Part shown: piece by piece, positions 213 through 13,685 of the stretch | Numbering within the stretch: position 1 is the first letter of the stretch | Layout: every line of letters begins with the position of its first letter | Assembly (NCBI GenBank): GCA_013360535.1 | Contig: JABWBL010000037.1 | Coordinates: forward strand, 1 to 13,685 | Direction of reading: 5' to 3' | Origin: Planctomycetaceae bacterium | GTDB lineage: Bacteria > Planctomycetota > UBA1135 > GCA-002686595 | DNA length: 13,685 nt | Notes under the pieces: model-generated | The model's database searches: none | The model's input: the letters and a program-made list of their open reading frames with translations, nothing else | Told to the model about the DNA's origin: nothing | Position numbers and translations under genes: made by a program

Positions 213-253
213 GAGGCGTCGCGCAGGCGCGCGTCGGGGTTCTGTCTCGGGCG

Positions 254-281
254 TGGACAGCCGGGGTTCCTTTGACACAAT
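254..281 (+). promoter_or_regulatory. Candidate sigma70-type promoter for SulP-carbonic anhydrase
   Basis: TGGACA (254-259, five of six matches to TTGACA) is followed after 16 bases by CACAAT (276-281, four of six matches to TATAAT). Transcription would begin near 288 and leave a leader of about 65 bases before the ATG at 355. This position would also exclude the longer in-frame GTG start at 253. The match is modest and the sigma factors of this organism are unknown. Confidence 0.3.
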
Positions 282-354
282 CCCGCGCCGCGCGAGTGCC
301 CCTCACGCTCCGACTCGCCGCGCCCACGCAGCTCTTCCGCATCACAGGCCAACC

Positions 355-1974
355 ATGACTTGGATCGAGAGCGTCGTCCGCCGACTGCAACGACCGATGC
401 AGCGCGCGACCCCGTCGCCGCAGGCCGAGCGCCTGCTGCCGACCATGCGCCAGAGCTGGCGCGCGGACGTGCCGGGCTCGGCGGTCGTGTTCCTGGTCGC
501 GCTGCCGCTGTGCCTGGGCATCGCGCTCGCGTCGAACGCGCCGATGTTCTCCGGGCTGATCGCGGGCGTCGTCGGCGGGCTCGTCGTCGGCGCGCTCAGC
601 GGTTCGCAGCTGATGGTGAGCGGTCCCGCCGCGGGCCTGACGGCGATCGTGGTGACCGCAATCGCCGCGCTCGGCTCGTTCGAGGCGTTCCTCGCCTCGG
701 TGGTGATCGGCGGTGCGCTGCAGATCGTGCTCGGGCTCGCGCGCGCGGGCCAGATCGGACGCTACTTCCCGTCCGCGGTGGTGCGCGGGATGCTCGCGGC
801 CATCGGCCTGATCCTCGTGCTGAAGCAGCTTCCGCACGCGGTCGGCTACGACCACGACTTCGAGGGCGACGAATCGTTCGTGCAGCGCGACGGCGACACG
901 ACCTTCACCGCGCTCGAGCACGCGCTGCACGCCACGCACGGCGGCGCGATCGTGACGAGCCTGATCGCGCTCGCCGTGCTGATCCTCTGGGACCGCACCG
1001 GGCTGCGCAAGCTGCGGCTCCTGCCCGGGCCGCTCGCCGCGGTGCTCGTCGGCGTCGGCGTCAATGCGCTGCTCGGGCTGGCCAACGCGGACTGGGCTCT
1101 TTCAGGCGAGCACCTCGTCACGCTGCCGGTGATCGCGCGGCTCTCCGATCTCGCGGCGCACTTCTCGCTTCCGGACTGGTCGGCCTTCGCGCGCGACGAG
1201 ACTTGGCAGTTCGGCGTGACGATCGGCATCGTCGCGAGCCTCGAGACGCTGCTCAGCCTCGAGGCCACCGACCGGCTCGACCCGCACCGGCGCGAGTCGC
1301 CTTCCAGCCGCGAGCTCGTCGCGCAAGGTGTCGGCAACGTCGCCTCCGGTCTGGTGGGCGGCCTGCCCGTCACGGGCGTGATCGTGCGCAGCGCCGCGAA
1401 CATCGATGCGGGCAGCCAGACCAAGCTCTCCGCGCTGCTGCACGGCCTGTGGCTCGCGCTCGCGGTCGTGTTTGCGTCGACGCTGCTCAACCACATCCCG
1501 CTCGCGGCGCTGGCGGCGATCCTGCTCTACACGGGCTACAAGCTCGCGCACCCCAAGGTCGTGCGTGCGGTCTGGGCGCAAGGGCCGCCGCAGTTCGTGC
1601 CGTTCCTCGTCACGGTGATCGCGATCCTGCTGACGGACCTGCTGCACGGCATCGGCATCGGACTGGCGACGGGCTTCGCCTTCATCCTGTTCGACCAGCT
1701 GCGCGACCCGTGCTTCACGGTCGTGAGCCACTCCGGCGCCGTGCTGCGTCGCGTGCAGCTCCACGATCGCGTGTCGTTCCTCAACAAGGGCACGATCACG
1801 CGCCTGCTCGAGGAACAGAAGGCGGGCTCGCGGCTCGAGCTCGACGCCTCGCACTGCCTGTACATCGACCACGACGTGCTCGAGTACATCGGCAACTTCC
1901 GCCAGATCGCGCTGCAGCGCGGCATCGACCTGCGCCTCGTGGGTTTCAAGTTCCCCGACGAGCCCGCCACCTGA
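355..1974 (+). CDS. SulP family anion/bicarbonate transporter
   Basis: A 539-residue inner-membrane protein of the SulP (SLC26-like) family. The hallmark first membrane segment follows DVPGS at residues 38-42. A SGPAAGLTA motif lies in the transport core, and the signature beginning NVASGLVGGLPVTG starts at residue 328, followed by the SAANIDAGS region. About ten or more hydrophobic segments run to around residue 450. The soluble tail (about 456-539) resembles a STAS domain, with YIDHDVLEYI from residue 503. I chose the ATG at 355 because the GTG extension at 253 adds 34 low-complexity, arginine- and proline-rich residues and overlaps a possible promoter. No clear Shine-Dalgarno is visible. 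The carbonic anhydrase gene follows after 10 bases. SulP proteins beside beta-carbonic anhydrases are generally taken to move bicarbonate, so bicarbonate is the most likely substrate here; sulfate or another anion is possible. Confidence 0.92.
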   Translation: MTWIESVVRRLQRPMQRATPSPQAERLLPTMRQSWRADVPGSAVVFLVALPLCLGIALASNAPMFSGLIAGVVGGLVVGALSGSQLMVSGPAAGLTAIVVTAIAALGSFEAFLASVVIGGALQIVLGLARAGQIGRYFPSAVVRGMLAAIGLILVLKQLPHAVGYDHDFEGDESFVQRDGDTTFTALEHALHATHGGAIVTSLIALAVLILWDRTGLRKLRLLPGPLAAVLVGVGVNALLGLANADWALSGEHLVTLPVIARLSDLAAHFSLPDWSAFARDETWQFGVTIGIVASLETLLSLEATDRLDPHRRESPSSRELVAQGVGNVASGLVGGLPVTGVIVRSAANIDAGSQTKLSALLHGLWLALAVVFASTLLNHIPLAALAAILLYTGYKLAHPKVVRAVWAQGPPQFVPFLVTVIAILLTDLLHGIGIGLATGFAFILFDQLRDPCFTVVSHSGAVLRRVQLHDRVSFLNKGTITRLLEEQKAGSRLELDASHCLYIDHDVLEYIGNFRQIALQRGIDLRLVGFKFPDEPAT

Positions 1975-1984
1975 CGAGCCCACC

Positions 1985-2632
1985 ATGGAAAACCTCAAGC
2001 GCCTGTTCGAGACCAACCGCGCGATCGTGAGCGAGATCACTTCGAAGGACCCCGAGTTCTTCGCGCGCCGCGCGGGCAAGCAGGAGCCGCACTTCCTGTT
2101 CATCGGCTGCGGCGACAGTCGCGTGCCGGTCGAGACGCTCACGGGCGTGGCTCCGGGCGAGATGTTCGTGCACCGCAACATCGCCAATCAGGTGCGATCG
2201 GTCGACCTGAACCTGCTCTCGGTGCTGCAGTACGCGGTCGAGGTGCTCGACGTGAAGCACGTGATCGTGTGCGGCCACTACGAGTGCGGCGGCGTCAAGG
2301 CCGCGATGGGCAGCCAGAGCTACGGCCTCGTCGACCACTGGCTCGCGGGGATCCGCGACACGTGCAGCCGCCACGAGCAGGAGCTCGCGCGGCAGCCGGA
2401 CGACGAGCGGCGCTTCCGGCGCGTGGTCGAGCTCAACGTGCTGCGTCAGGTCTACAACCTCGCGCGCACGCCGATCGTGCAGGGGGCGTGGAAGCGCGGG
2501 CGCCGGCCGATGCTCCACGGCCTCGTCTACGACCTGCAAGACGGCCTGCTGAAGGACCTCGTGCTCGAGATCGACGGGAACGACGGAGTCGAGCGGATGC
2601 TCGGCACCGGTCGGCGCTCGATCGGCGACTGA
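1985..2632 (+). CDS. can: Beta-class carbonic anhydrase
   Basis: A 215-residue cytosolic zinc enzyme that interconverts CO2 and bicarbonate. The zinc ligands and catalytic dyad are all visible at the same numbering as in E. coli Can: Cys42, Asp44 and Arg46 in CGDSR, then His98 and Cys101 in the GHYECGG motif. The HRNIAN segment (63-68) is also typical. Length is close to the family norm of about 220, with no truncation. It starts ten bases after the SulP stop, so the two are very probably co-transcribed. The pair would import bicarbonate and equilibrate it with CO2, for carboxylation reactions or pH balance. No strong Shine-Dalgarno precedes the ATG, which may mean translation coupled to the SulP gene. 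Enzyme identity is secure; the symbol rests on similarity of sequence and length. Confidence 0.95.
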   Translation: MENLKRLFETNRAIVSEITSKDPEFFARRAGKQEPHFLFIGCGDSRVPVETLTGVAPGEMFVHRNIANQVRSVDLNLLSVLQYAVEVLDVKHVIVCGHYECGGVKAAMGSQSYGLVDHWLAGIRDTCSRHEQELARQPDDERRFRRVVELNVLRQVYNLARTPIVQGAWKRGRRPMLHGLVYDLQDGLLKDLVLEIDGNDGVERMLGTGRRSIGD

Positions 2633-4277: not shown

Positions 4278-5771
4278 ATGAATCGACTCCTTCTCGGCGC
4301 CTGCGCTCTCGCGGGCCTCGCTTTCGTCAGCGCCTGCTCCACGAGCCCGAGCGCGCACGAGCCGCTCCTGCATCAGGAGCAGTGGCCGCTCGAGCGCCAG
4401 AACTTCGCCTACCGCTGGCTCGACATCACGGAGGAGGTCGCGGCGCGTGATGTGGAGCGTGAAGGGGCGCGGCCGACGGTGCTCTCGCGCCAGATGGCGG
4501 TGTGGGCGACGGCGATGTTCGATGCTTGGGCGGCCTACGACGAGCGCGCGGTCGGGACGCGGCTGGGCGGTTCGTTGCGCAGGCCTGAGCGGGAGCGCAC
4601 GGAGGCGAACAAGAACGAGGCCGTCAGCTACGCGAGCTACCGCGCGCTGGTCGCGATGTATCCGAACGACGAGGCGTGGCTCGCGGCGCGCATGCGCGAG
4701 CTGGGCTTCGATCCGCTCGACACGTCGCTCGATCCTGCGACGGCGCGCGGCGTCGGCAACCTCGCGGCGCAGGCGGTGCTCGAGTACCGCCGCCACGACG
4801 GCTCGAACCAGCACGGCGACCTGCCGGGCTCGAGCGGCAAGCCCTACTCGGACTGGACCGGCTACAAGCCGGTCAACACGGCCGACTCGATCGTCGATCC
4901 CGATCGCTGGCAGCCGATCACGTTCACGCGCGCCGACGGCACCAAGTTCACGCCGGGCTACCTGACGCCGCACTGGGGTGAGGTGAAGCCGTTTGCGCTG
5001 GAAAACTCGGCGCAATTCCGACCGGGCCCGCCGCCGACGACGCGCACGGACGACACGACGCTGCGCGCGCAGGTCGATCAGGTGCTCGCCTACAACCGCT
5101 CGCTCACGCCGCGCGAGAAGGCGATCGTCGAGTTCATGCGCGACGGGCCGCGCTCGACCGGACAGAGCGGGCACTGGCTGCGCTTCGCGCAGGATGTGTC
5201 GCGTCGCGACGAGCACTCGCTCGACGAGGACGTGAAGCTCTACTTCACGGTCGCCAACGTCGCCTTCGACGCGTTCATCTCGTGCTGGGAGACCAAGCGG
5301 CACTACGACACGTCGCGCCCGTGGACGCTCGTGCGGCACTACTACAAGGGCCAGCGCGTGCAGAGCTGGGCCGGTCCGCAGGGCGGCGTGGTCGAAGTGC
5401 CCGCCGAGCAGTGGCATCCCTACTCGCCCGCCGTGTTCATCACGCCGCCGTTCCCCGGGTACACGAGCGGCCACGCGACGGTGAGCGGTGCGTGCGCGAA
5501 GATGCTCGAGCTCTTCACCGGCAGCGACCACTACGGTGCGATCGAGCGGCGCTCGTGCTGCGAGCTGACCGAGGTCGACGCGGGCCCGCGCGTCACGCTC
5601 GACCTGCCGACCTTCTCCGGCACGGCGGAAATGGCGGCGATCTCGCGCGCCATGGGCGGCTACCACATTCCGATCGACAACGACGTCGGGCTCGAAGTCG
5701 GCCGCAAGCTCGCGACGTGGAGCTGGCCGCGTTATCAGGCCTTTTTCGACGGCACGGCGAAGCCGCGCTGA
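4278..5771 (+). CDS. Vanadium-dependent haloperoxidase/PAP2-like lipoprotein
   Basis: A 497-residue protein that begins MNRLLLGACALAGLAF and has a lipobox (VSAC), so it is probably lipid-anchored at the periplasmic or outer face. All three motifs of the vanadium haloperoxidase and PAP2 acid phosphatase superfamily are present. The first is Lys340 with Arg347-Pro348 (K-x6-RP), the second is Ser397-Gly398-His399 (SGH), and the third is Ser456-Arg457 with His463 (SR-x5-H, followed by Asp467). These residues bind vanadate or phosphate, and the SGH histidine is the acid-base residue. Family members oxidise halides with peroxide or hydrolyse phosphate esters, and sequence does not settle which. The long N-terminal helical region and total length favour the haloperoxidase branch over small PAP2 phosphatases. 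The start is set by the signal peptide; an upstream TTG at 4221 would add 19 residues. It follows the porin by 100 bases on the same strand. Confidence 0.85.
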   Translation: MNRLLLGACALAGLAFVSACSTSPSAHEPLLHQEQWPLERQNFAYRWLDITEEVAARDVEREGARPTVLSRQMAVWATAMFDAWAAYDERAVGTRLGGSLRRPERERTEANKNEAVSYASYRALVAMYPNDEAWLAARMRELGFDPLDTSLDPATARGVGNLAAQAVLEYRRHDGSNQHGDLPGSSGKPYSDWTGYKPVNTADSIVDPDRWQPITFTRADGTKFTPGYLTPHWGEVKPFALENSAQFRPGPPPTTRTDDTTLRAQVDQVLAYNRSLTPREKAIVEFMRDGPRSTGQSGHWLRFAQDVSRRDEHSLDEDVKLYFTVANVAFDAFISCWETKRHYDTSRPWTLVRHYYKGQRVQSWAGPQGGVVEVPAEQWHPYSPAVFITPPFPGYTSGHATVSGACAKMLELFTGSDHYGAIERRSCCELTEVDAGPRVTLDLPTFSGTAEMAAISRAMGGYHIPIDNDVGLEVGRKLATWSWPRYQAFFDGTAKPR

Positions 5772-9245: not shown

Positions 9246-10490
9246 ATGAGAGCCTCGGCCCCCTTTCACCTGCTCGCCAAGCCCTTTGGCGCGCGCTGCA
9301 ACCTCGAGTGCCGGTACTGCTTCTACCTGCCCAAGCGCGAGCTCCTTCCCGACGCCCCTGCGCGGATGAGCGACGCGACGCTCGAACATTTCACCCGCGC
9401 CTACATCGAGGCGCAGCCGGCGGGGACGAGCGAGGTCGAGTTCGCGTGGCAAGGCGGCGAGCCGACGCTCGCGGGCCTCGCCTTCTTCGAGCGCGCGCTC
9501 GAGCTGCAACGGCGCTTCGCACGCCCCGGCATGGTGATCCGCAACGCGCTGCAGACCAACGGCACGCTGCTCGACACGGACTGGGCGCAGTTCCTCGCGC
9601 GCCACGCCTTCCTCGTCGGCGTCAGCCTCGACGGGCCGCCGCGCCTGCACGACCCGCTGCGCGTCGACACGCACGGCCACGCGACGCACGAGCGCGTCCT
9701 GCGCGCGCTCGCGCTGCTCGCCGAGCACAAGGTCGAGCACAACGTCCTGACCGTCGTGCATGCACTCAACGCTCCGCATCCCGTGGAGGTCTACGACTTC
9801 CTCGTCGGCACGGGCGTGCGTTTCCTGCAGTTCATCCCGCTGGTCGAGCCCGCGCCGGAAGGTGGCCTGAGCGCACGCAGCGTGCCCGCGGCGCAGTACG
9901 GCAAGTTCCTCGTCGGCGTGCTCGAGCGCTGGCTCGCGCGTGGCCACGTCGGTGAAGTCTTCGTGCGCGACTTCGACTCGACACTCGCGGCGCTGATGGA
10001 CCTGCCTGGCCGCACGTGCGTGTCGTCGCAGGAATGTGGGCGTTGCCTCGCGATCGAACGCACGGGCGACGTGTACTCCTGCGACCACTTCGTCGATCCC
10101 GAGCACGCGCTCGGCCGCGTCGGTGAGCACGACCTCGCCGAGCTCGTCGACGGCACCTTCCAGTCCGGCTTCGGGCGCGCGAAGTCCGCGGATTTGCCGC
10201 GGCAATGCCGCGAATGCGAGCACCTGCGCCTGTGCTGGGGCGGCTGTCCGAAGGATCGCATCGCGCGAGATTCCTTCGGCGAACCCGGTCTCAACCAGCT
10301 CTGCACCGGCTACCGCATCTTCTTCGAGCGCGCGTTGCCCGTGCTGAAGGCGATGGAGCGCTGCCTGCGCGCCGGTCGGCCCGCGCGCGAGTGGCGCGCA
10401 CTGACCGAGAACGCCCCGCGCGCCGTCGATCGCAATTCCCCTTGCCCGTGCGGCAGTGGCGCGAAGTTCAAGCGCTGCTGCGGGGCCTGA
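9246..10490 (+). CDS. Anaerobic sulfatase-maturase-type radical SAM/SPASM enzyme with SEC-C tail
   Basis: A 414-residue cytosolic radical SAM protein. Cys18, Cys22 and Cys25 (CNLECRYC) bind the SAM-cleaving 4Fe-4S cluster. The SPASM part reproduces the cysteine spacing I recall for anSMEcpe: Cys258, Cys264, Cys279, Cys321, Cys324, Cys330, Cys334 and Cys353. Asp280 follows Cys279 and matches the proposed catalytic base. Such enzymes oxidise a Cys or Ser of sulfatases to formylglycine. At the end, CPCGSGAKFKRCC (residues 400-412) is a SEC-C zinc motif. The ATG at 9246 has AAGG five bases upstream and places the family's N-terminal start correctly. It leads a five-gene same-strand run, with the ThiH-like gene 31 bases on. 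No sulfatase is in the window, so its target is elsewhere or different; a related peptide-modifying role is possible. Confidence 0.85.
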   Translation: MRASAPFHLLAKPFGARCNLECRYCFYLPKRELLPDAPARMSDATLEHFTRAYIEAQPAGTSEVEFAWQGGEPTLAGLAFFERALELQRRFARPGMVIRNALQTNGTLLDTDWAQFLARHAFLVGVSLDGPPRLHDPLRVDTHGHATHERVLRALALLAEHKVEHNVLTVVHALNAPHPVEVYDFLVGTGVRFLQFIPLVEPAPEGGLSARSVPAAQYGKFLVGVLERWLARGHVGEVFVRDFDSTLAALMDLPGRTCVSSQECGRCLAIERTGDVYSCDHFVDPEHALGRVGEHDLAELVDGTFQSGFGRAKSADLPRQCRECEHLRLCWGGCPKDRIARDSFGEPGLNQLCTGYRIFFERALPVLKAMERCLRAGRPAREWRALTENAPRAVDRNSPCPCGSGAKFKRCCGA

Positions 10491-10521: not shown

Positions 10522-11574
10522 ATGACGACCCTGACGGCCCAACCGCCCGCGCCCCTGCTCGAACACCTCGCGCGACGGGCGCATCCGTGCGAGACGGAGC
10601 TGTTTCTCGCGCAACCGTTGTCCAGCTTGCTCGCGCAGCACGCCGTCGAGCTCGCACGCGCGCGCCACGAGCACTTCGGCCGCCGCGTGCTGCTGTTCGC
10701 GCCGCTGTACGTCGCCAACGCGTGCATGAACGACTGCTCCTACTGCGGCTTCCGGCGCAGCCTGCGCGTGCGACGCCAGCGCCTCGGCCCCGGCGCCGTG
10801 CTGCGCGAGGCCAAGCTGCTCGCGGAGCGTGGGCACCGCTCGCTCGACCTCGTGGCCGGAGAGGTGCCGCGCGACGTCTTCATCGACTCGGTCGCGCGTG
10901 TCGTCGAGGCGATCCTGCGCCGTACGGCGATCGAGCGCATCCACCTGAACCTCGGCGTGCTCTCCGACGCCCAGTTCCGCCGTTTGCGCGACGCCGGTGC
11001 GGTCGGGTACCACCTCTATCAGGAAACCTACGACGCGGAGACCTACGCCAGAGTGCATGTCGCCGGCCCCAAGAGCGCGATGGAGCCGCGCCTCGAAGCG
11101 ATCGCACGCGCGCACGCGGCCGGTTTCGAGCGCATCGGGCTCGGGATCCTGCTCGGCCTCGCCCCGCTCGCGCCGGAGCTCGCGCGGCTGGTCGCGCACG
11201 CGGAATGGCTCGCCGAGCAGGCTCCGGACGTGCGTCTGGGCTTTTCCCTGCCGCGGATCCAGCGTGTGGACGACTCGTGCGGCTTCCAGACGCCCGCGCC
11301 CGTCGACGACGAGACGTTCCTGAGGGCGCTGCTCTTCCTGCGTCTCAAGTTCCCGCGTGCCGAACTGACGGTGACGACCCGCGAGCGCGCCGAGCTGCGC
11401 GACCGTTCGCTCGCCCTCGGCGTCACGAAGCTCAGCGCGGGTGTTTCGACCGCACCCGGCGGTTATGGACAGTCGGACGACGCGACGCCGCAGTTCTCGA
11501 TCCACGACGAACGTTCGTTCGCCGAGGTCGCGCAGGCCGTGCGCGCGAGCGGACTCGAGCCGGTCGCGAGCTAG
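10522..11574 (+). CDS. ThiH-like radical SAM enzyme (2-iminoacetate synthase family)
   Basis: A 350-residue cytosolic radical SAM protein of the ThiH/HydG branch. Cys68, Cys72 and Cys75 (CMNDCSYC, then GF) bind the 4Fe-4S cluster. The family pattern YQETYDAETYARVHVAGPKS, a GLGILLGL segment and the late SAG-x5-GGYG motif all fit ThiH, which cleaves tyrosine into dehydroglycine and p-cresol for thiazole synthesis. HydG's extra C-terminal cluster cysteines are absent. The protein stops at LEPVAS, without the WKDWD-like ending I associate with typical ThiH. The ATG at 10522 is preferred over a longer start at 10456 that overlaps the upstream gene. No thiG, thiS, thiF or thiC homologue is nearby, and no TPP riboswitch is visible. 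Its neighbours are sulfur carriers, so it may serve another pathway; thiamine synthesis with partners elsewhere remains possible. Confidence 0.82.
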   Translation: MTTLTAQPPAPLLEHLARRAHPCETELFLAQPLSSLLAQHAVELARARHEHFGRRVLLFAPLYVANACMNDCSYCGFRRSLRVRRQRLGPGAVLREAKLLAERGHRSLDLVAGEVPRDVFIDSVARVVEAILRRTAIERIHLNLGVLSDAQFRRLRDAGAVGYHLYQETYDAETYARVHVAGPKSAMEPRLEAIARAHAAGFERIGLGILLGLAPLAPELARLVAHAEWLAEQAPDVRLGFSLPRIQRVDDSCGFQTPAPVDDETFLRALLFLRLKFPRAELTVTTRERAELRDRSLALGVTKLSAGVSTAPGGYGQSDDATPQFSIHDERSFAEVAQAVRASGLEPVAS

Positions 11575-11597: not shown

Positions 11598-11840
11598 ATG
11601 AGCTCGCAGCCCGATCTCCCCCAAGCCGACTCCACGTGGGACGCCGGCGACATGGGCTGTGGCGAGCTCGTGATCGAGCTGCGCATGAAGATGCGCGAGC
11701 TCGCGCCGCGTGCGGTCCTGCATCTGGTCGCGCGCGATCCCGGAGCGGTCGAGGACATTCCCGCATGGTGCGGGATGACGGGCCACACGCTCGTCCGCGC
11801 CGCCCACCCCACGTACTTCATCCGCCGCAAGGAGAGCTGA
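11598..11840 (+). CDS. TusA-like sulfur carrier protein, noncanonical
   Basis: An 80-residue protein with the TusA (SirA/YeeD) fold pattern. Canonical TusA carries a persulfide on the cysteine of a CPxP motif and hands sulfur to DsrE-type or other partners. Here the corresponding cysteine is Cys21 in GDMGCGELV, so the following proline is replaced by glycine. A second cysteine, Cys58 in EDIPAWCGMTGHTLV, matches the conserved later cysteine of the family (DIPGFC in E. coli TusA). The body (ELRMKMRELAPRAVLHLVARDPGAVEDI) fits the alpha/beta sandwich. The gene lies 23 bases after the ThiH-like gene and one base before the DsrE-like gene, whose ribosome site sits inside its last codons, so the two are translationally linked. 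A close relative of this domain begins the fusion protein two genes on. The family call is good; persulfide carriage by a CG-type site is inferred. Confidence 0.78.
   Translation: MSSQPDLPQADSTWDAGDMGCGELVIELRMKMRELAPRAVLHLVARDPGAVEDIPAWCGMTGHTLVRAAHPTYFIRRKES
11829..11834 (+). promoter_or_regulatory. Strong Shine-Dalgarno for the DsrE-like gene
   Basis: AAGGAG lies seven bases before the ATG at 11842, inside the last codons of the TusA-like gene. It fixes the start and shows that the organism uses Shine-Dalgarno initiation here, unlike at several other genes in the window. This arrangement implies coupled translation of the two small proteins. Confidence 0.75.
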
Positions 11841-11841
11841 C

Positions 11842-12201
11842 ATGGGTCGTTTCTGCGTTTCGCTGACGTGCGCCAAGGACAACCGCGACAAGGCCACCGT
11901 GGCGTTCGTCGTCGCCAACGCCGCCGCCGGATCCGAGCAGGAGACGATGGTGTTCCTCTCGAACGAAGGGGTGCGCCTGGCGAGCCCCGGTTACGCCGAC
12001 GACATCAAGGAAGAGGGCTTTGCGCCGCTCGCGGAGCTGATGGCGAAGTTCGCGGCGGCGGGCGGGAAGATCTACGTGTGCTCGCCGTGCTTCAAGAAGC
12101 GCGGGCTCGACGAGACCAAGCTCATCGCGGGCGCGACGATCGTCGGCGGCGCGAAGCTGGTCGAGTTCCTCGCCGGCGGCTCGCCCTGCGTCTCGTTCTG
12201 A
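11842..12201 (+). CDS. DsrE-like sulfur-relay protein with CxxC
   Basis: A 119-residue small cytosolic protein with the DsrE/DsrF-like pattern: an N-terminal strand, a helix, the segment QETMVFLSNEGVRLASPGY, then LMAKFAAAGGKIYVCSPCFKKRGL and a closing IVGGAKLVEFL. Cys80 and Cys83 form a CxxC at the site where DsrE-family proteins carry their active cysteine. Cys5, Cys10 and Cys116 are additional. Relatives accept or pass persulfide sulfur from TusA, or act in thiol redox. Starting one base after the TusA-like stop with a strong AAGGAG, it is almost certainly a partner of that protein. The fusion gene follows after 10 bases. Proteins of this type are sometimes labelled peroxiredoxin-like in databases, so a plain redox role is an alternative. 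The CxxC could equally form a disulfide or bind a metal. Confidence 0.75.
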   Translation: MGRFCVSLTCAKDNRDKATVAFVVANAAAGSEQETMVFLSNEGVRLASPGYADDIKEEGFAPLAELMAKFAAAGGKIYVCSPCFKKRGLDETKLIAGATIVGGAKLVEFLAGGSPCVSF

Positions 12202-12211: not shown

Positions 12212-13685
12212 GTGGGCGGCCATCCCTTCGCGGCGAAGGCGAGCTTCGACGGCGGCGATCTCGACTGCGGCAACGGGCTCCTGCTCCTGATCCGCAAGCA
12301 CATCGACCCGCTCGAAGCGGGCGACTTGCTCGAGATCCGCTCGACGGAGATCTCCGTGCCCGAGGACCTGCCGGCCTGGTGTCGGCTGACGGGCAACGAG
12401 CTCGTCAGCCACCTGCAGCAAGGCCGGCAACACAGTTTCCTCGTGTCGAAGGGCAAGTTTGCGCCGGAGAAGGCGCGCGCGGCGGTGTCGCAGGATGCGA
12501 TGCCGCTGCGCCAGCCGGTCGTCGCGGTGAAAATTCCCGCGAGCCTGCCGAAGCCCGCGCCTGCGCCGGAGATCGCGCCGCTCTCGGTGATGGGCATCGG
12601 CAGCTGGCCGCGGCCCGTGTGGCTGCTCGACGCTCTGCATCGCCACCTCGAAGGACGGCTCGACGACGCGAGCTTCGAAGCGACGGCCGACGACGCAGTG
12701 CGCCTGTGCGTCGACGCGCAGCTCAAGGCCGGCGTCGACGTCCTCACCGATGGCGAGCAGCGCCGCGACAACTACTCGAGCTTCGTCGGCGGCATCCTCG
12801 ACAACTGCCAGCTGATTCCGATCACCGACCTGCTGCCCTACGTCGATGATCCGGCGGAGTTCGAGCGCGAGCTGCGCGCGCTCGACGTCCCGGCCGGGAA
12901 AGTGCGGCATCCGGCTGTGTTCGGTCCGCTCGGGCGTTCGCGCCCGATCGCGCTCGGCGAGGCGCGTTTCCTGCGCTCGCTGAGCGACAAGCCACGCAAG
13001 GTCGCGTTGCCGGGCCCGTACCTGCTGACGCGCACGATGTGGATGGAGTGCGTTTCCGATCGCGCCTATGCCGACCGCGAGGCGCTCGCGCGCGATGTCG
13101 TGCGCGTGTTGCGCGAGGAACTCGCCGACTTGCTCGCCGAGGGCGTCGCGCTGGTTCAGTTCGACGAACCGGTGCTCAGCGAAGTGGTGTTCGGGCACGC
13201 GCAGCAGAACCGCACGTTCATGTGCGGGGCGCTCGGCGAGAAGCTCGACACGCCGGCGGAGCTCGCGTTCGCGGAGAAGCTGCTCGCGGAGCTCACCGAG
13301 GGCTTCCCGCGCGAACGCCTCGCGCTGCACGTCTGCCGCGGCAACTGGTCGCCGGACGAGAGCGTCGCGCTGCACGGCGATTATCGGCCACTCCTGCCGC
13401 TGCTCCGGCGCGCTCCCGTCGGCACGTTGTTTCTCGAGATGTGCACGCCGCGCGCGGGGGATGGCGCGCTGCTGGCGGAGATCCCGCGCACGACACGCAT
13501 CGGCATCGGTGCGGTCAACCAGAAGCTGCGCGAGGTCGAGACGCCCGAGCAGATCCTCGCGCGGCTGGGCCCGCTGGTCGCGGCCCTCGGGCCCGAGCGC
13601 GTGCTGCTCAACCCCGACTGCGGCTTCGCGACCTTCGCCGACAACCCGCTCGCGTCCGCCCAGATCGCCCAGGCCAAGCTGGCCT
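12212..13685 (+). CDS. TusA-like domain fused to MetE-type (cobalamin-independent methionine synthase) core, 3' end cut
   Basis: An open frame from GTG at 12212 to the window edge gives 491 residues without a stop. Residues about 10-80 are a TusA-like domain, with Cys19 in GDLDCGNG and Cys57 in EDLPAWCRLTGNELV, closely echoing the separate TusA-like protein upstream. Residues 82-123 are a proline- and alanine-rich linker. From residue 124 (LSVMGIGSWPRP) comes a MetE-type catalytic barrel with TDGEQRRDNY (Asp180 to Glu182), PGPYLLTRT (267 onward), QFDEPVL (316 onward), and zinc ligands His373, Cys375 (HVCRGN), Glu409 (LFLEM) and Cys470 (NPDCGF). The MetE core activates a thiol on zinc for methyl transfer from a folate. 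The separate N-terminal MetE domain is not present; the TusA-like domain takes its place. Probably only a few tens of residues at most are missing. The substrate is unknown. Confidence 0.82.
   Translation, partial: MGGHPFAAKASFDGGDLDCGNGLLLLIRKHIDPLEAGDLLEIRSTEISVPEDLPAWCRLTGNELVSHLQQGRQHSFLVSKGKFAPEKARAAVSQDAMPLRQPVVAVKIPASLPKPAPAPEIAPLSVMGIGSWPRPVWLLDALHRHLEGRLDDASFEATADDAVRLCVDAQLKAGVDVLTDGEQRRDNYSSFVGGILDNCQLIPITDLLPYVDDPAEFERELRALDVPAGKVRHPAVFGPLGRSRPIALGEARFLRSLSDKPRKVALPGPYLLTRTMWMECVSDRAYADREALARDVVRVLREELADLLAEGVALVQFDEPVLSEVVFGHAQQNRTFMCGALGEKLDTPAELAFAEKLLAELTEGFPRERLALHVCRGNWSPDESVALHGDYRPLLPLLRRAPVGTLFLEMCTPRAGDGALLAEIPRTTRIGIGAVNQKLREVETPEQILARLGPLVAALGPERVLLNPDCGFATFADNPLASAQIAQAKLA

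What the first reader, a model, noticed from the sequence alone, without database searches (positions are those of the whole stretch)
12212..13685. A sulfur-carrier domain fused to a methionine-synthase core
The sequence shows a TusA-like domain (Cys19, Cys57), a linker, and a MetE-type barrel with all four zinc ligands (His373, Cys375, Glu409, Cys470). MetE cores hold the acceptor thiol on zinc. A TusA domain carries sulfur as a persulfide. Joining them in one chain suggests that the carrier delivers the thiol, or a carrier-bound sulfur, to the zinc site. That would mean either making a methylated sulfur product or assembling a thiol acceptor in place. I do not know this architecture as a described enzyme.
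Basis: partly seen in the sequence, partly recalled or inferred. Interest (0 to 1): 0.75.

Follow-up and report, generated by a model that had tools for sequence, protein, structure and literature searches.

The report
Sulfur carrier fused to methionine synthase
A bacterial protein joins a sulfur-carrying domain to the zinc-containing half of a methionine-making enzyme; the joined protein turns up in several bacterial phyla beside other sulfur-carrying proteins, and what it makes has not been tested.

Summary
The frame 12212-13684 (+) encodes a TusA domain (Cys19, Cys57), a Pro-rich linker and a MetE-type barrel with His373/Cys375/Glu409/Cys470. It is no assembly join: one frame crosses the domain junction in 79 of 80 relatives fetched from several phyla. 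DsrE lies nearby in 76 of 80 loci and a second TusA in 66 of 80. Zinc and homocysteine ligands are kept in 95 of 95 fused rows; the MetE pterin ligand Glu583 in 93 (Asp in 2), but in 0 of 23 MesD and other core-MetE rows, 3 of them gaps. In Planctomycetota a split form has TusA-OsmC beside a separate MetE. All 20 genomes checked also hold a MetH-type gene, so this is accessory. Best reading: a homocysteine-type zinc methyltransferase, probably pterin-fed, with TusA in place of MetE's N-terminal barrel, served by a DsrE3/TusA sulfur relay. Sulfur delivery to the zinc is unproven. A selenium link (selD in 20 of 20) faded against background. Eight on-topic paper searches found no description. New variant of a known kind.

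The parts
12212..13685 (+). TusA-MetE fusion gene, 491 codons held, cut by the contig end
   Evidence: closest relatives 507 aa
12245..12454 (+). TusA domain (about residues 12-81) with Cys19 (12266-12268) and Cys57; motif CGNG in place of CPxP
12455..12580 (+). inter-domain linker (about residues 82-123); first half variable, second half conserved (P109, L112, P113, P115, A118, P123 in 36-39 of 39 rows)
12581..13684 (+). MetE-type zinc barrel: Zn ligands H373, C375, E409, C470; homocysteine ligands S131, E182, D318; pterin-type ligand E324 and basic R232
11842..12201 (+). DsrE gene, nearest solved relative 3mc3 (DsrE3A type), Cys80 and Cys83 invariant in 77 of 77 rows
11598..11840 (+). stand-alone TusA gene, motif CGEL
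10522..11574 (+). ThiH-like radical SAM gene upstream; among the 80 fetched loci found beside the module only in L003 (same genus as the window), so membership doubtful

Best explanation
The protein is an accessory zinc-dependent S-methyltransferase of the methionine-synthase type. Its barrel holds homocysteine (or a close amino-acid thiol) on zinc and takes a methyl group, most likely from a reduced pterin such as methyl-tetrahydrofolate. A TusA domain on a Pro-rich linker stands where canonical MetE has its N-terminal barrel. The neighbouring DsrE3-type protein and second TusA load sulfane sulfur (persulfide or thiosulfonate) onto the fused TusA Cys19, so that sulfur handling and methyl transfer are coupled in one chain. 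Shown: domain order, ligand conservation, gene neighbourhood, a single fused clade in one tree. Inferred: homocysteine as acceptor, pterin as donor, sulfur loading of Cys19, and the coupling itself.
For: Zn and Hcy ligands in 95 of 95 fused rows (3 of these rows repeat records, and 4 members under 460 aa were left out). E. coli Glu605 / T. maritima Glu583, which makes the bidentate pterin contact (PMC539065, passages): fused 93 E + 2 D of 95; unfused rows outside type C 19 of 19 (17 split, L131, and L150, a truncated member of the fused clade); type C 6 of 6; full MetE 3 of 3; MesD 0 of 4; other core-MetE 0 of 19, 3 of them gaps. The basic residue at Tm Arg496: R in 95 of 95 fused, K/R in the same 19 of 19. 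phmmer aligns both positions to T. maritima MetE chain residues 528 and 615; that these are Arg496 and Glu583 rests on my offset of 32. DsrE in 76 of 80 loci, stand-alone TusA in 66 of 80. DsrE3A-to-TusA thiosulfonate transfer is established elsewhere (PMC4175335, abstract and passages), and 3mc3, which that paper calls a DsrE3A, is the best solved match of the window's DsrE (E = 4.5e-6). In 7 Binatia-like loci metX and metY lie divergently beside it. A divergent cysteine desulfurase gene precedes the set in a Paracoccus plasmid.
Against: Two other folate contacts of MetE are missing (Arg493, DMV motif), the Trp539 position is ambiguous (W277 in one alignment, not in the others), and the N-terminal-barrel contacts are absent by construction. 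Type C relatives have Ser at the Arg496 position (6 of 6) and no TusA or DsrE was called beside them, so neither seems essential to the wider family. The binding role of E324 is read from a homologue. The 19 genomes checked plus the own genome carry a PF02574 (MetH-type) gene, so the cell does not need this for methionine. DsrE was not found in L039, L042 and L051, and stand-alone TusA not in 14 of 80 loci, the 7 Binatia-like ones among them. No structure could be predicted.
Confidence: 0.4

Rival explanations
1. The carried sulfur is itself the methyl (or alkyl) acceptor: persulfide sulfur on TusA Cys19 is presented to zinc and alkylated, giving a methylated sulfur species or a thiol built in place.
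For: TusA and MetE in one chain, both catalytic sites kept; operon with DsrE and a second TusA; a PhnD-type uptake system in 18 of 80 loci whose binding protein looks suited to a small oxyanion (ligand inferred).
Against: Hcy amino/carboxylate ligands invariant in 95 of 95, which a bare persulfide would not need; no dedicated partner enzyme recognised; type C relatives appear to do without TusA.
Confidence: 0.2
2. The TusA domain is a docking or structural piece that replaces the N-terminal barrel; the enzyme is simply a further core methionine synthase, and DsrE/TusA serve as thiol redox helpers.
For: In split loci TusA is instead joined to an OsmC domain and MetE is a separate gene, so thiol-handling modules vary while MetE stays; the second half of the linker is conserved, as if packed on the barrel.
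Against: C19 in 77 of 78 (1 gap) and C57 in 75 of 78 rows is more than a scaffold needs.
Confidence: 0.25
3. Selenium metabolism: the TusA/DsrE pair acts like YedF and the system handles selenium.
For: selD in 20 of 20 fusion genomes, 2 of 14 controls; selA and trxB directly after the fusion in a Paracoccus plasmid (SelA confirmed by NCBIfam); Planctomycetota: selD in 45 of 50 genomes with a family member against 201 of 342 without, p = 7e-6.
Against: High background: Burkholderiales 9 of 11 against 206 of 289, p = 0.73; fused genomes alone in Planctomycetota 15 of 17 against 231 of 375, p = 0.04; the tests are not corrected for kinship, and 4 fused genomes have no selD match (G150, G220, G809, G917; some assemblies are incomplete). 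Motifs differ from YedF (CPxP and CGxC in PMC5322559, passages).
Confidence: 0.08

Closest known systems
Canonical MetE (cobalamin-independent methionine synthase), C-terminal barrel
   Same: Zn ligands, Hcy ligands, Glu583-type pterin ligand and one basic tail-binding residue
   Different: No N-terminal barrel; TusA domain instead; DMV motif and Arg493 absent; scores far under the NCBIfam MetE cut-offs
Core methionine synthases MesA-D / core-MetE (PMC7857596, passages and one part of a section; PMC7005905, passages)
   Same: Single zinc/Hcy barrel without the duplicated barrel; MesD, too, often co-occurs with MetH
   Different: Those two texts hold no mention of TusA or DsrE (term counts 0); the 4 MesD rows lack the pterin Glu. 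MesA, MesB and MesC sequences were not in hand. A MesX (DUF1852) partner was not searched for in the fusion loci
TusA sulfur carriers
   Same: Match over the Pfam cut-off, Cys at the carrier position, DsrE partner
   Different: CPxP (motif as given in PMC5322559) replaced by CG[NSG]G, second conserved Cys57, fused to a methyltransferase
DsrE3A-TusA thiosulfate relay of Metallosphaera (PMC4175335, abstract and passages)
   Same: DsrE and TusA genes side by side; DsrE3A-type relative
   Different: There beside heterodisulfide-reductase-like genes for sulfur oxidation; here beside a methyltransferase
YedF (TusA-DsrE, selenium linked; PMC5322559 and PMC2432076, passages)
   Same: Same two domain families
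   Different: Separate genes here; other cysteine motifs; weak selD link

Membership tests
Zinc/homocysteine methyltransferase barrel (PF01717) | His-Cys-Glu-Cys zinc ligands | tested here: met
   95 of 95 fused rows
Zinc/homocysteine methyltransferase barrel (PF01717) | Hcy ligands S433/E484/D599 of E. coli MetE | tested here: met
   95 of 95 fused rows
Canonical MetE | Two barrels, N-terminal barrel present | tested here: not met
   TusA and linker in its place
Folate-using MetE | C-barrel pterin contacts (Glu583, Trp539, Arg493, Arg496, DMV) | tested here: inconclusive
   Glu583 and Arg496 kept, Arg493 and DMV not, Trp539 ambiguous
MesD | Groups with MesD sequences | tested here: not met
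   the 4 MesD rows fall outside the fused+split+type C clade in the FastTree tree
MesD | MesX (DUF1852) partner | not tested
   no DUF1852 search was made in fusion loci or genomes
TusA | Pfam TusA match over the curated cut-off | tested here: met
   31.3 against 28.6 bits
TusA | CPxP active-site motif | tested here: not met
   CGNG 67, CGSG 7, CGGG 3 of 78, one unread
Methionine synthase (activity) | Makes methionine from homocysteine | not testable with these tools
   needs assay or complementation
YedF / selenium trait | Strict co-occurrence with selD | tested here: not met
   4 fused genomes without a selD match: G150, G220, G809, G917; some are incomplete assemblies

The most novel reading that the evidence does not exclude
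A methionine-synthase barrel has been turned into a sulfur-alkylation station: a DsrE3-TusA relay, in some lineages fed by its own oxyanion transporter, hands sulfane sulfur on Cys19 to the zinc, where it is joined to a methyl group or to an activated homoserine (metX lies next door in Binatia). That would be a PLP-free or folate-to-persulfide route to homocysteine, methionine or a methylated sulfur compound.
Probability: 0.12. Interest if true: 0.9.

Novelty: new variant of a known kind. Interest (0 to 1): 0.6.

Why it matters
Source databases name this protein a homocysteine methyltransferase or a TusA protein, and neither name explains why the two are one chain. The family is found across phyla with invariant catalytic residues, so it does something selected for. 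It joins two separate branches of sulfur chemistry, persulfide trafficking and zinc-thiolate methyl transfer, and makes one question testable: can a carrier-bound sulfur be used by a methionine-synthase-type zinc site? The split and fused forms, and forms without TusA, give a natural set for working out what the carrier adds.

Tried and rejected
Selenium: pursued after 20 of 20 fusion genomes had selD, then weakened by background counts. Assembly join or frameshift at the junction: rejected; frame breaks inside the barrel exist in L009 and L056. Housekeeping methionine synthase: rejected as sole role, since a PF02574 gene was found in 19 of 19 genomes and in the own genome; that Pfam family also holds enzymes other than MetH. 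In G007 and G017 the best match lies in an open frame of about 373 aa, and in G016 only partial matches were found. The ThiH-like gene as a partner: among 80 loci only in L003, left aside. The c8/c9 pair (about 178 and 510 aa, in 9 and 8 of 80 loci) has no match over a family cut-off and only very weak solved relatives. Three of the 19 'other' rows (L166, L174, L182) show a MesD-like motif and may be MesD too. Gene calls in loci come from my own codon-usage script, not a standard gene finder. OsmC and PhnD-like naming in split and type C loci was checked by Pfam on one locus each, L119 and L125; the rest is by length, profile or eye.

Full report
Observation. The frame 12212-13684 on the + strand starts with GTG ten bases after the stop of a DsrE gene and runs to the end of the contig. 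Pfam finds TusA (residues 24-80) and Meth_synt_2. The window is contig C502 of a 4.05 Mb assembly, 78% complete. Closest relatives of 507 aa show that only about 16 residues are missing. The nearest named record, 94% identical, is a Planctomycetota bin, by its name from Lac Pavin (L003).

Real and widespread. The protein search scored the 8000 candidates sharing most words, and 7954 passed; that count includes ordinary MetE-like proteins, and only the best 120 were listed. Those are 502-551 aa long; 96 of 120 list both Pfam domains, the other 24 list no TusA match although they have the length of the fusion. The genome scan found 283 relatives and kept 80 loci, labelled Planctomycetota, Binatota, Rokubacteria, Chloroflexi, Burkholderiales, Rhizobiales and others, at 60-94% identity; some labels of metagenome bins may be wrong. 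In 79 of the 80 one frame crosses the domain junction. I count 17 as fused, including G180, which is cut by a contig end; 40 of the 50 were looked at in their gene order (39 fetched, and the own genome), the other 10 are taken as unfused because their match starts at query residue 89 or later. 1 of 398 in the phylum of a Massilia, the seed itself; 11 of 300 in its order, seed included, two of them partial matches.

Catalytic residues. In one search, 78 fused rows were aligned with E. coli MetE; four members under 460 aa (L008, L009, L056 and a second gene in L053) were left out. Zinc and homocysteine ligands are kept in every fused row. Their identity as ligands is from PMC7857596 (passages and one part of a section). 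Folate contacts are from PMC539065 (passages). Glu583 is kept as E324 in 93 rows with Asp in 2. It is Glu in 19 of 19 unfused rows outside type C (17 split, L131, and L150), 6 of 6 type C and 3 of 3 full MetE rows, but in 0 of 4 MesD and 0 of 19 other core-MetE rows, 3 of these 19 being gaps (L183 gave no row). A basic residue stands at the Arg496 position in all 95 fused rows and in those 19, but Ser in 6 of 6 type C rows; 4 of 19 other rows also have K or R there. Arg493 and the DMV motif are not kept, and the Trp539 position cannot be settled without a structure. I read this as a pocket that still leans towards a pterin methyl donor, unlike MesD, which PMC7857596 reports to work without methyl-folate.

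The TusA parts. The fused domain has CGNG, CGSG or CGGG at the carrier Cys (67, 7 and 3 of 78; one unread); the stand-alone TusA mostly has CGEL or CGDL (37 of 45). Neither shows CPxP. Cys57 is kept in 75 of 78. The DsrE has Cys80 and Cys83 in 77 of 77 rows, and its best solved match is 3mc3 (E = 4.5e-6), which PMC4175335 names as a DsrE3A; that paper shows thiosulfate passing from DsrE3A to TusA (abstract and passages).

Neighbourhood. Of the 80 loci, DsrE is found in 76 (one search counts 75 because its filter hides the one in L082), stand-alone TusA in 66, a PhnD-type binding protein in 18, the unknown pair c8/c9 in 9 and 8, a second DsrE-like gene in 15, a transglutaminase-like gene in 5, and metX with metY in 7, Binatia-like loci that are partly near-identical. 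L008 starts inside the gene; L039, L042 and L051 show no DsrE. In a Paracoccus plasmid the order is cysteine desulfurase (divergent), TusA, DsrE, two unknowns, fusion, selA, trxB. The binding protein is closest to HtxB; across 18 copies it keeps the residues that I align with W52, R178 and D206, but has His and Ser where HtxB has F158 and N128, as in phosphite binders. PMC5700983 (passages) speaks of a 'hybrid' class with features of both; whether these 18 belong to it I did not test. A three-oxygen anion is my inference; sulfite or thiosulfate would suit the relay.

Split and TusA-free forms. Of 24 unfused loci fetched from the window's phylum, 17 have a TusA-bearing gene of 225-264 aa directly before, or in L155 one gene before, a separate MetE, with DsrE close by in 16 of 17 (not called in L135); 6 are type C (OsmC-size gene, PhnD-like-size gene, MetE); 1 (L131) is neither. 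Pfam confirms TusA plus OsmC for L119, and OsmC, Phosphonate-bd and acyl-CoA dehydrogenase for L125. NCBIfam's nearest names for the last two are the Rv1680 and Rv1679 families, under their cut-offs. In the FastTree tree the fused rows, with the truncated L150, form one clade (0.90), and fused, split and type C together form one (1.0), with the MesD and other rows outside. So the fusion probably arose once and spread.

Need for it. A PF02574 gene is present in 19 of 19 fusion genomes and in the own genome; 5 of 19 also hold a full-length MetE-type frame. In the own genome the fusion is the only Meth_synt_2 match. The fusion is therefore an extra, not the only methionine synthase.

Selenium. 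selD was found over the cut-off in 20 of 20 genomes, against 2 of 14 controls, which looked decisive. Background: 246 of 392 in the phylum and 215 of 300 in Burkholderiales. With any family member 45 of 50 against 201 of 342 (p = 7e-6); fused alone 15 of 17 against 231 of 375 (p = 0.04); Burkholderiales 9 of 11 against 206 of 289 (p = 0.73). Not kinship-corrected. I keep it as a weak rival.

Literature. Eight on-topic searches of the held library listed no paper that I recognised as describing a TusA-MetE fusion; two more asked other questions. One search found 37 papers and listed 20; one search found 12 and listed 10. I saw listings only, except the papers read in passages as cited. Most subscription papers are not held, so a description there is possible.

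Verdict. Real, conserved, probably of one origin, in a sulfur-relay setting, undescribed as far as searched. The enzyme is most likely a homocysteine-type methyltransferase; what the TusA arm does is the open and testable point.

Noticed in passing
G000:C386:197-1138 (own genome): selD over the curated cut-off with one in-frame TGA, as expected of a selenocysteine-containing SelD; most of the phylum's selD matches that were listed carry one TGA.
   Followed up: partly
window 10522-11574: ThiH-like radical SAM protein (287 bits, cut-off 380) directly before TusA; among 80 loci seen only in the same-genus L003.
   Followed up: partly
window 9246-10490: Anaerobic sulfatase maturase-type radical SAM/SPASM protein with a SEC-C tail.
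   Followed up: no
window 253-2632: SulP-family transporter followed by a carbonic anhydrase (Pro_CA).
   Followed up: no
window 4278-5771: DUF6851 / vanadium chloroperoxidase-like protein between two porin-like genes.
   Followed up: no
L119 8588-9325 (-) and similar loci: TusA-OsmC fusion beside a separate MetE; by eye the OsmC parts of L119, L120 and L125 each lack at least one of the usual two cysteines (motif recalled).
   Followed up: partly
L125 6113-9947 (-): TusA-free set: OsmC, PhnD-like protein without an evident signal, MetE, acyl-CoA dehydrogenase-like; NCBIfam points to Rv1680 and Rv1679 families, under cut-off.
   Followed up: partly
L024 5586-7985 and 17 similar loci: ABC transporter with an HtxB-like binding protein whose third-oxygen site is of the phosphite-binder kind, inside a sulfur-relay gene set.
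   Followed up: partly
L065 5854-7919: Pair of unknown proteins (c8 with membrane stretches by eye, c9) between DsrE and the fusion; 187 homologues of c9, none of the 120 listed with a Pfam domain.
   Followed up: partly
L009 8583-10166 and L056 5717-7288: In both, the fusion gene is broken into two frames at about the same place inside the barrel (near query residues 280-299); cause unknown.
   Followed up: no
G001, G002, G013 (Binatia): 12-13 Meth_synt_2 matches per genome, many in separate core-MetE-size frames.
   Followed up: no
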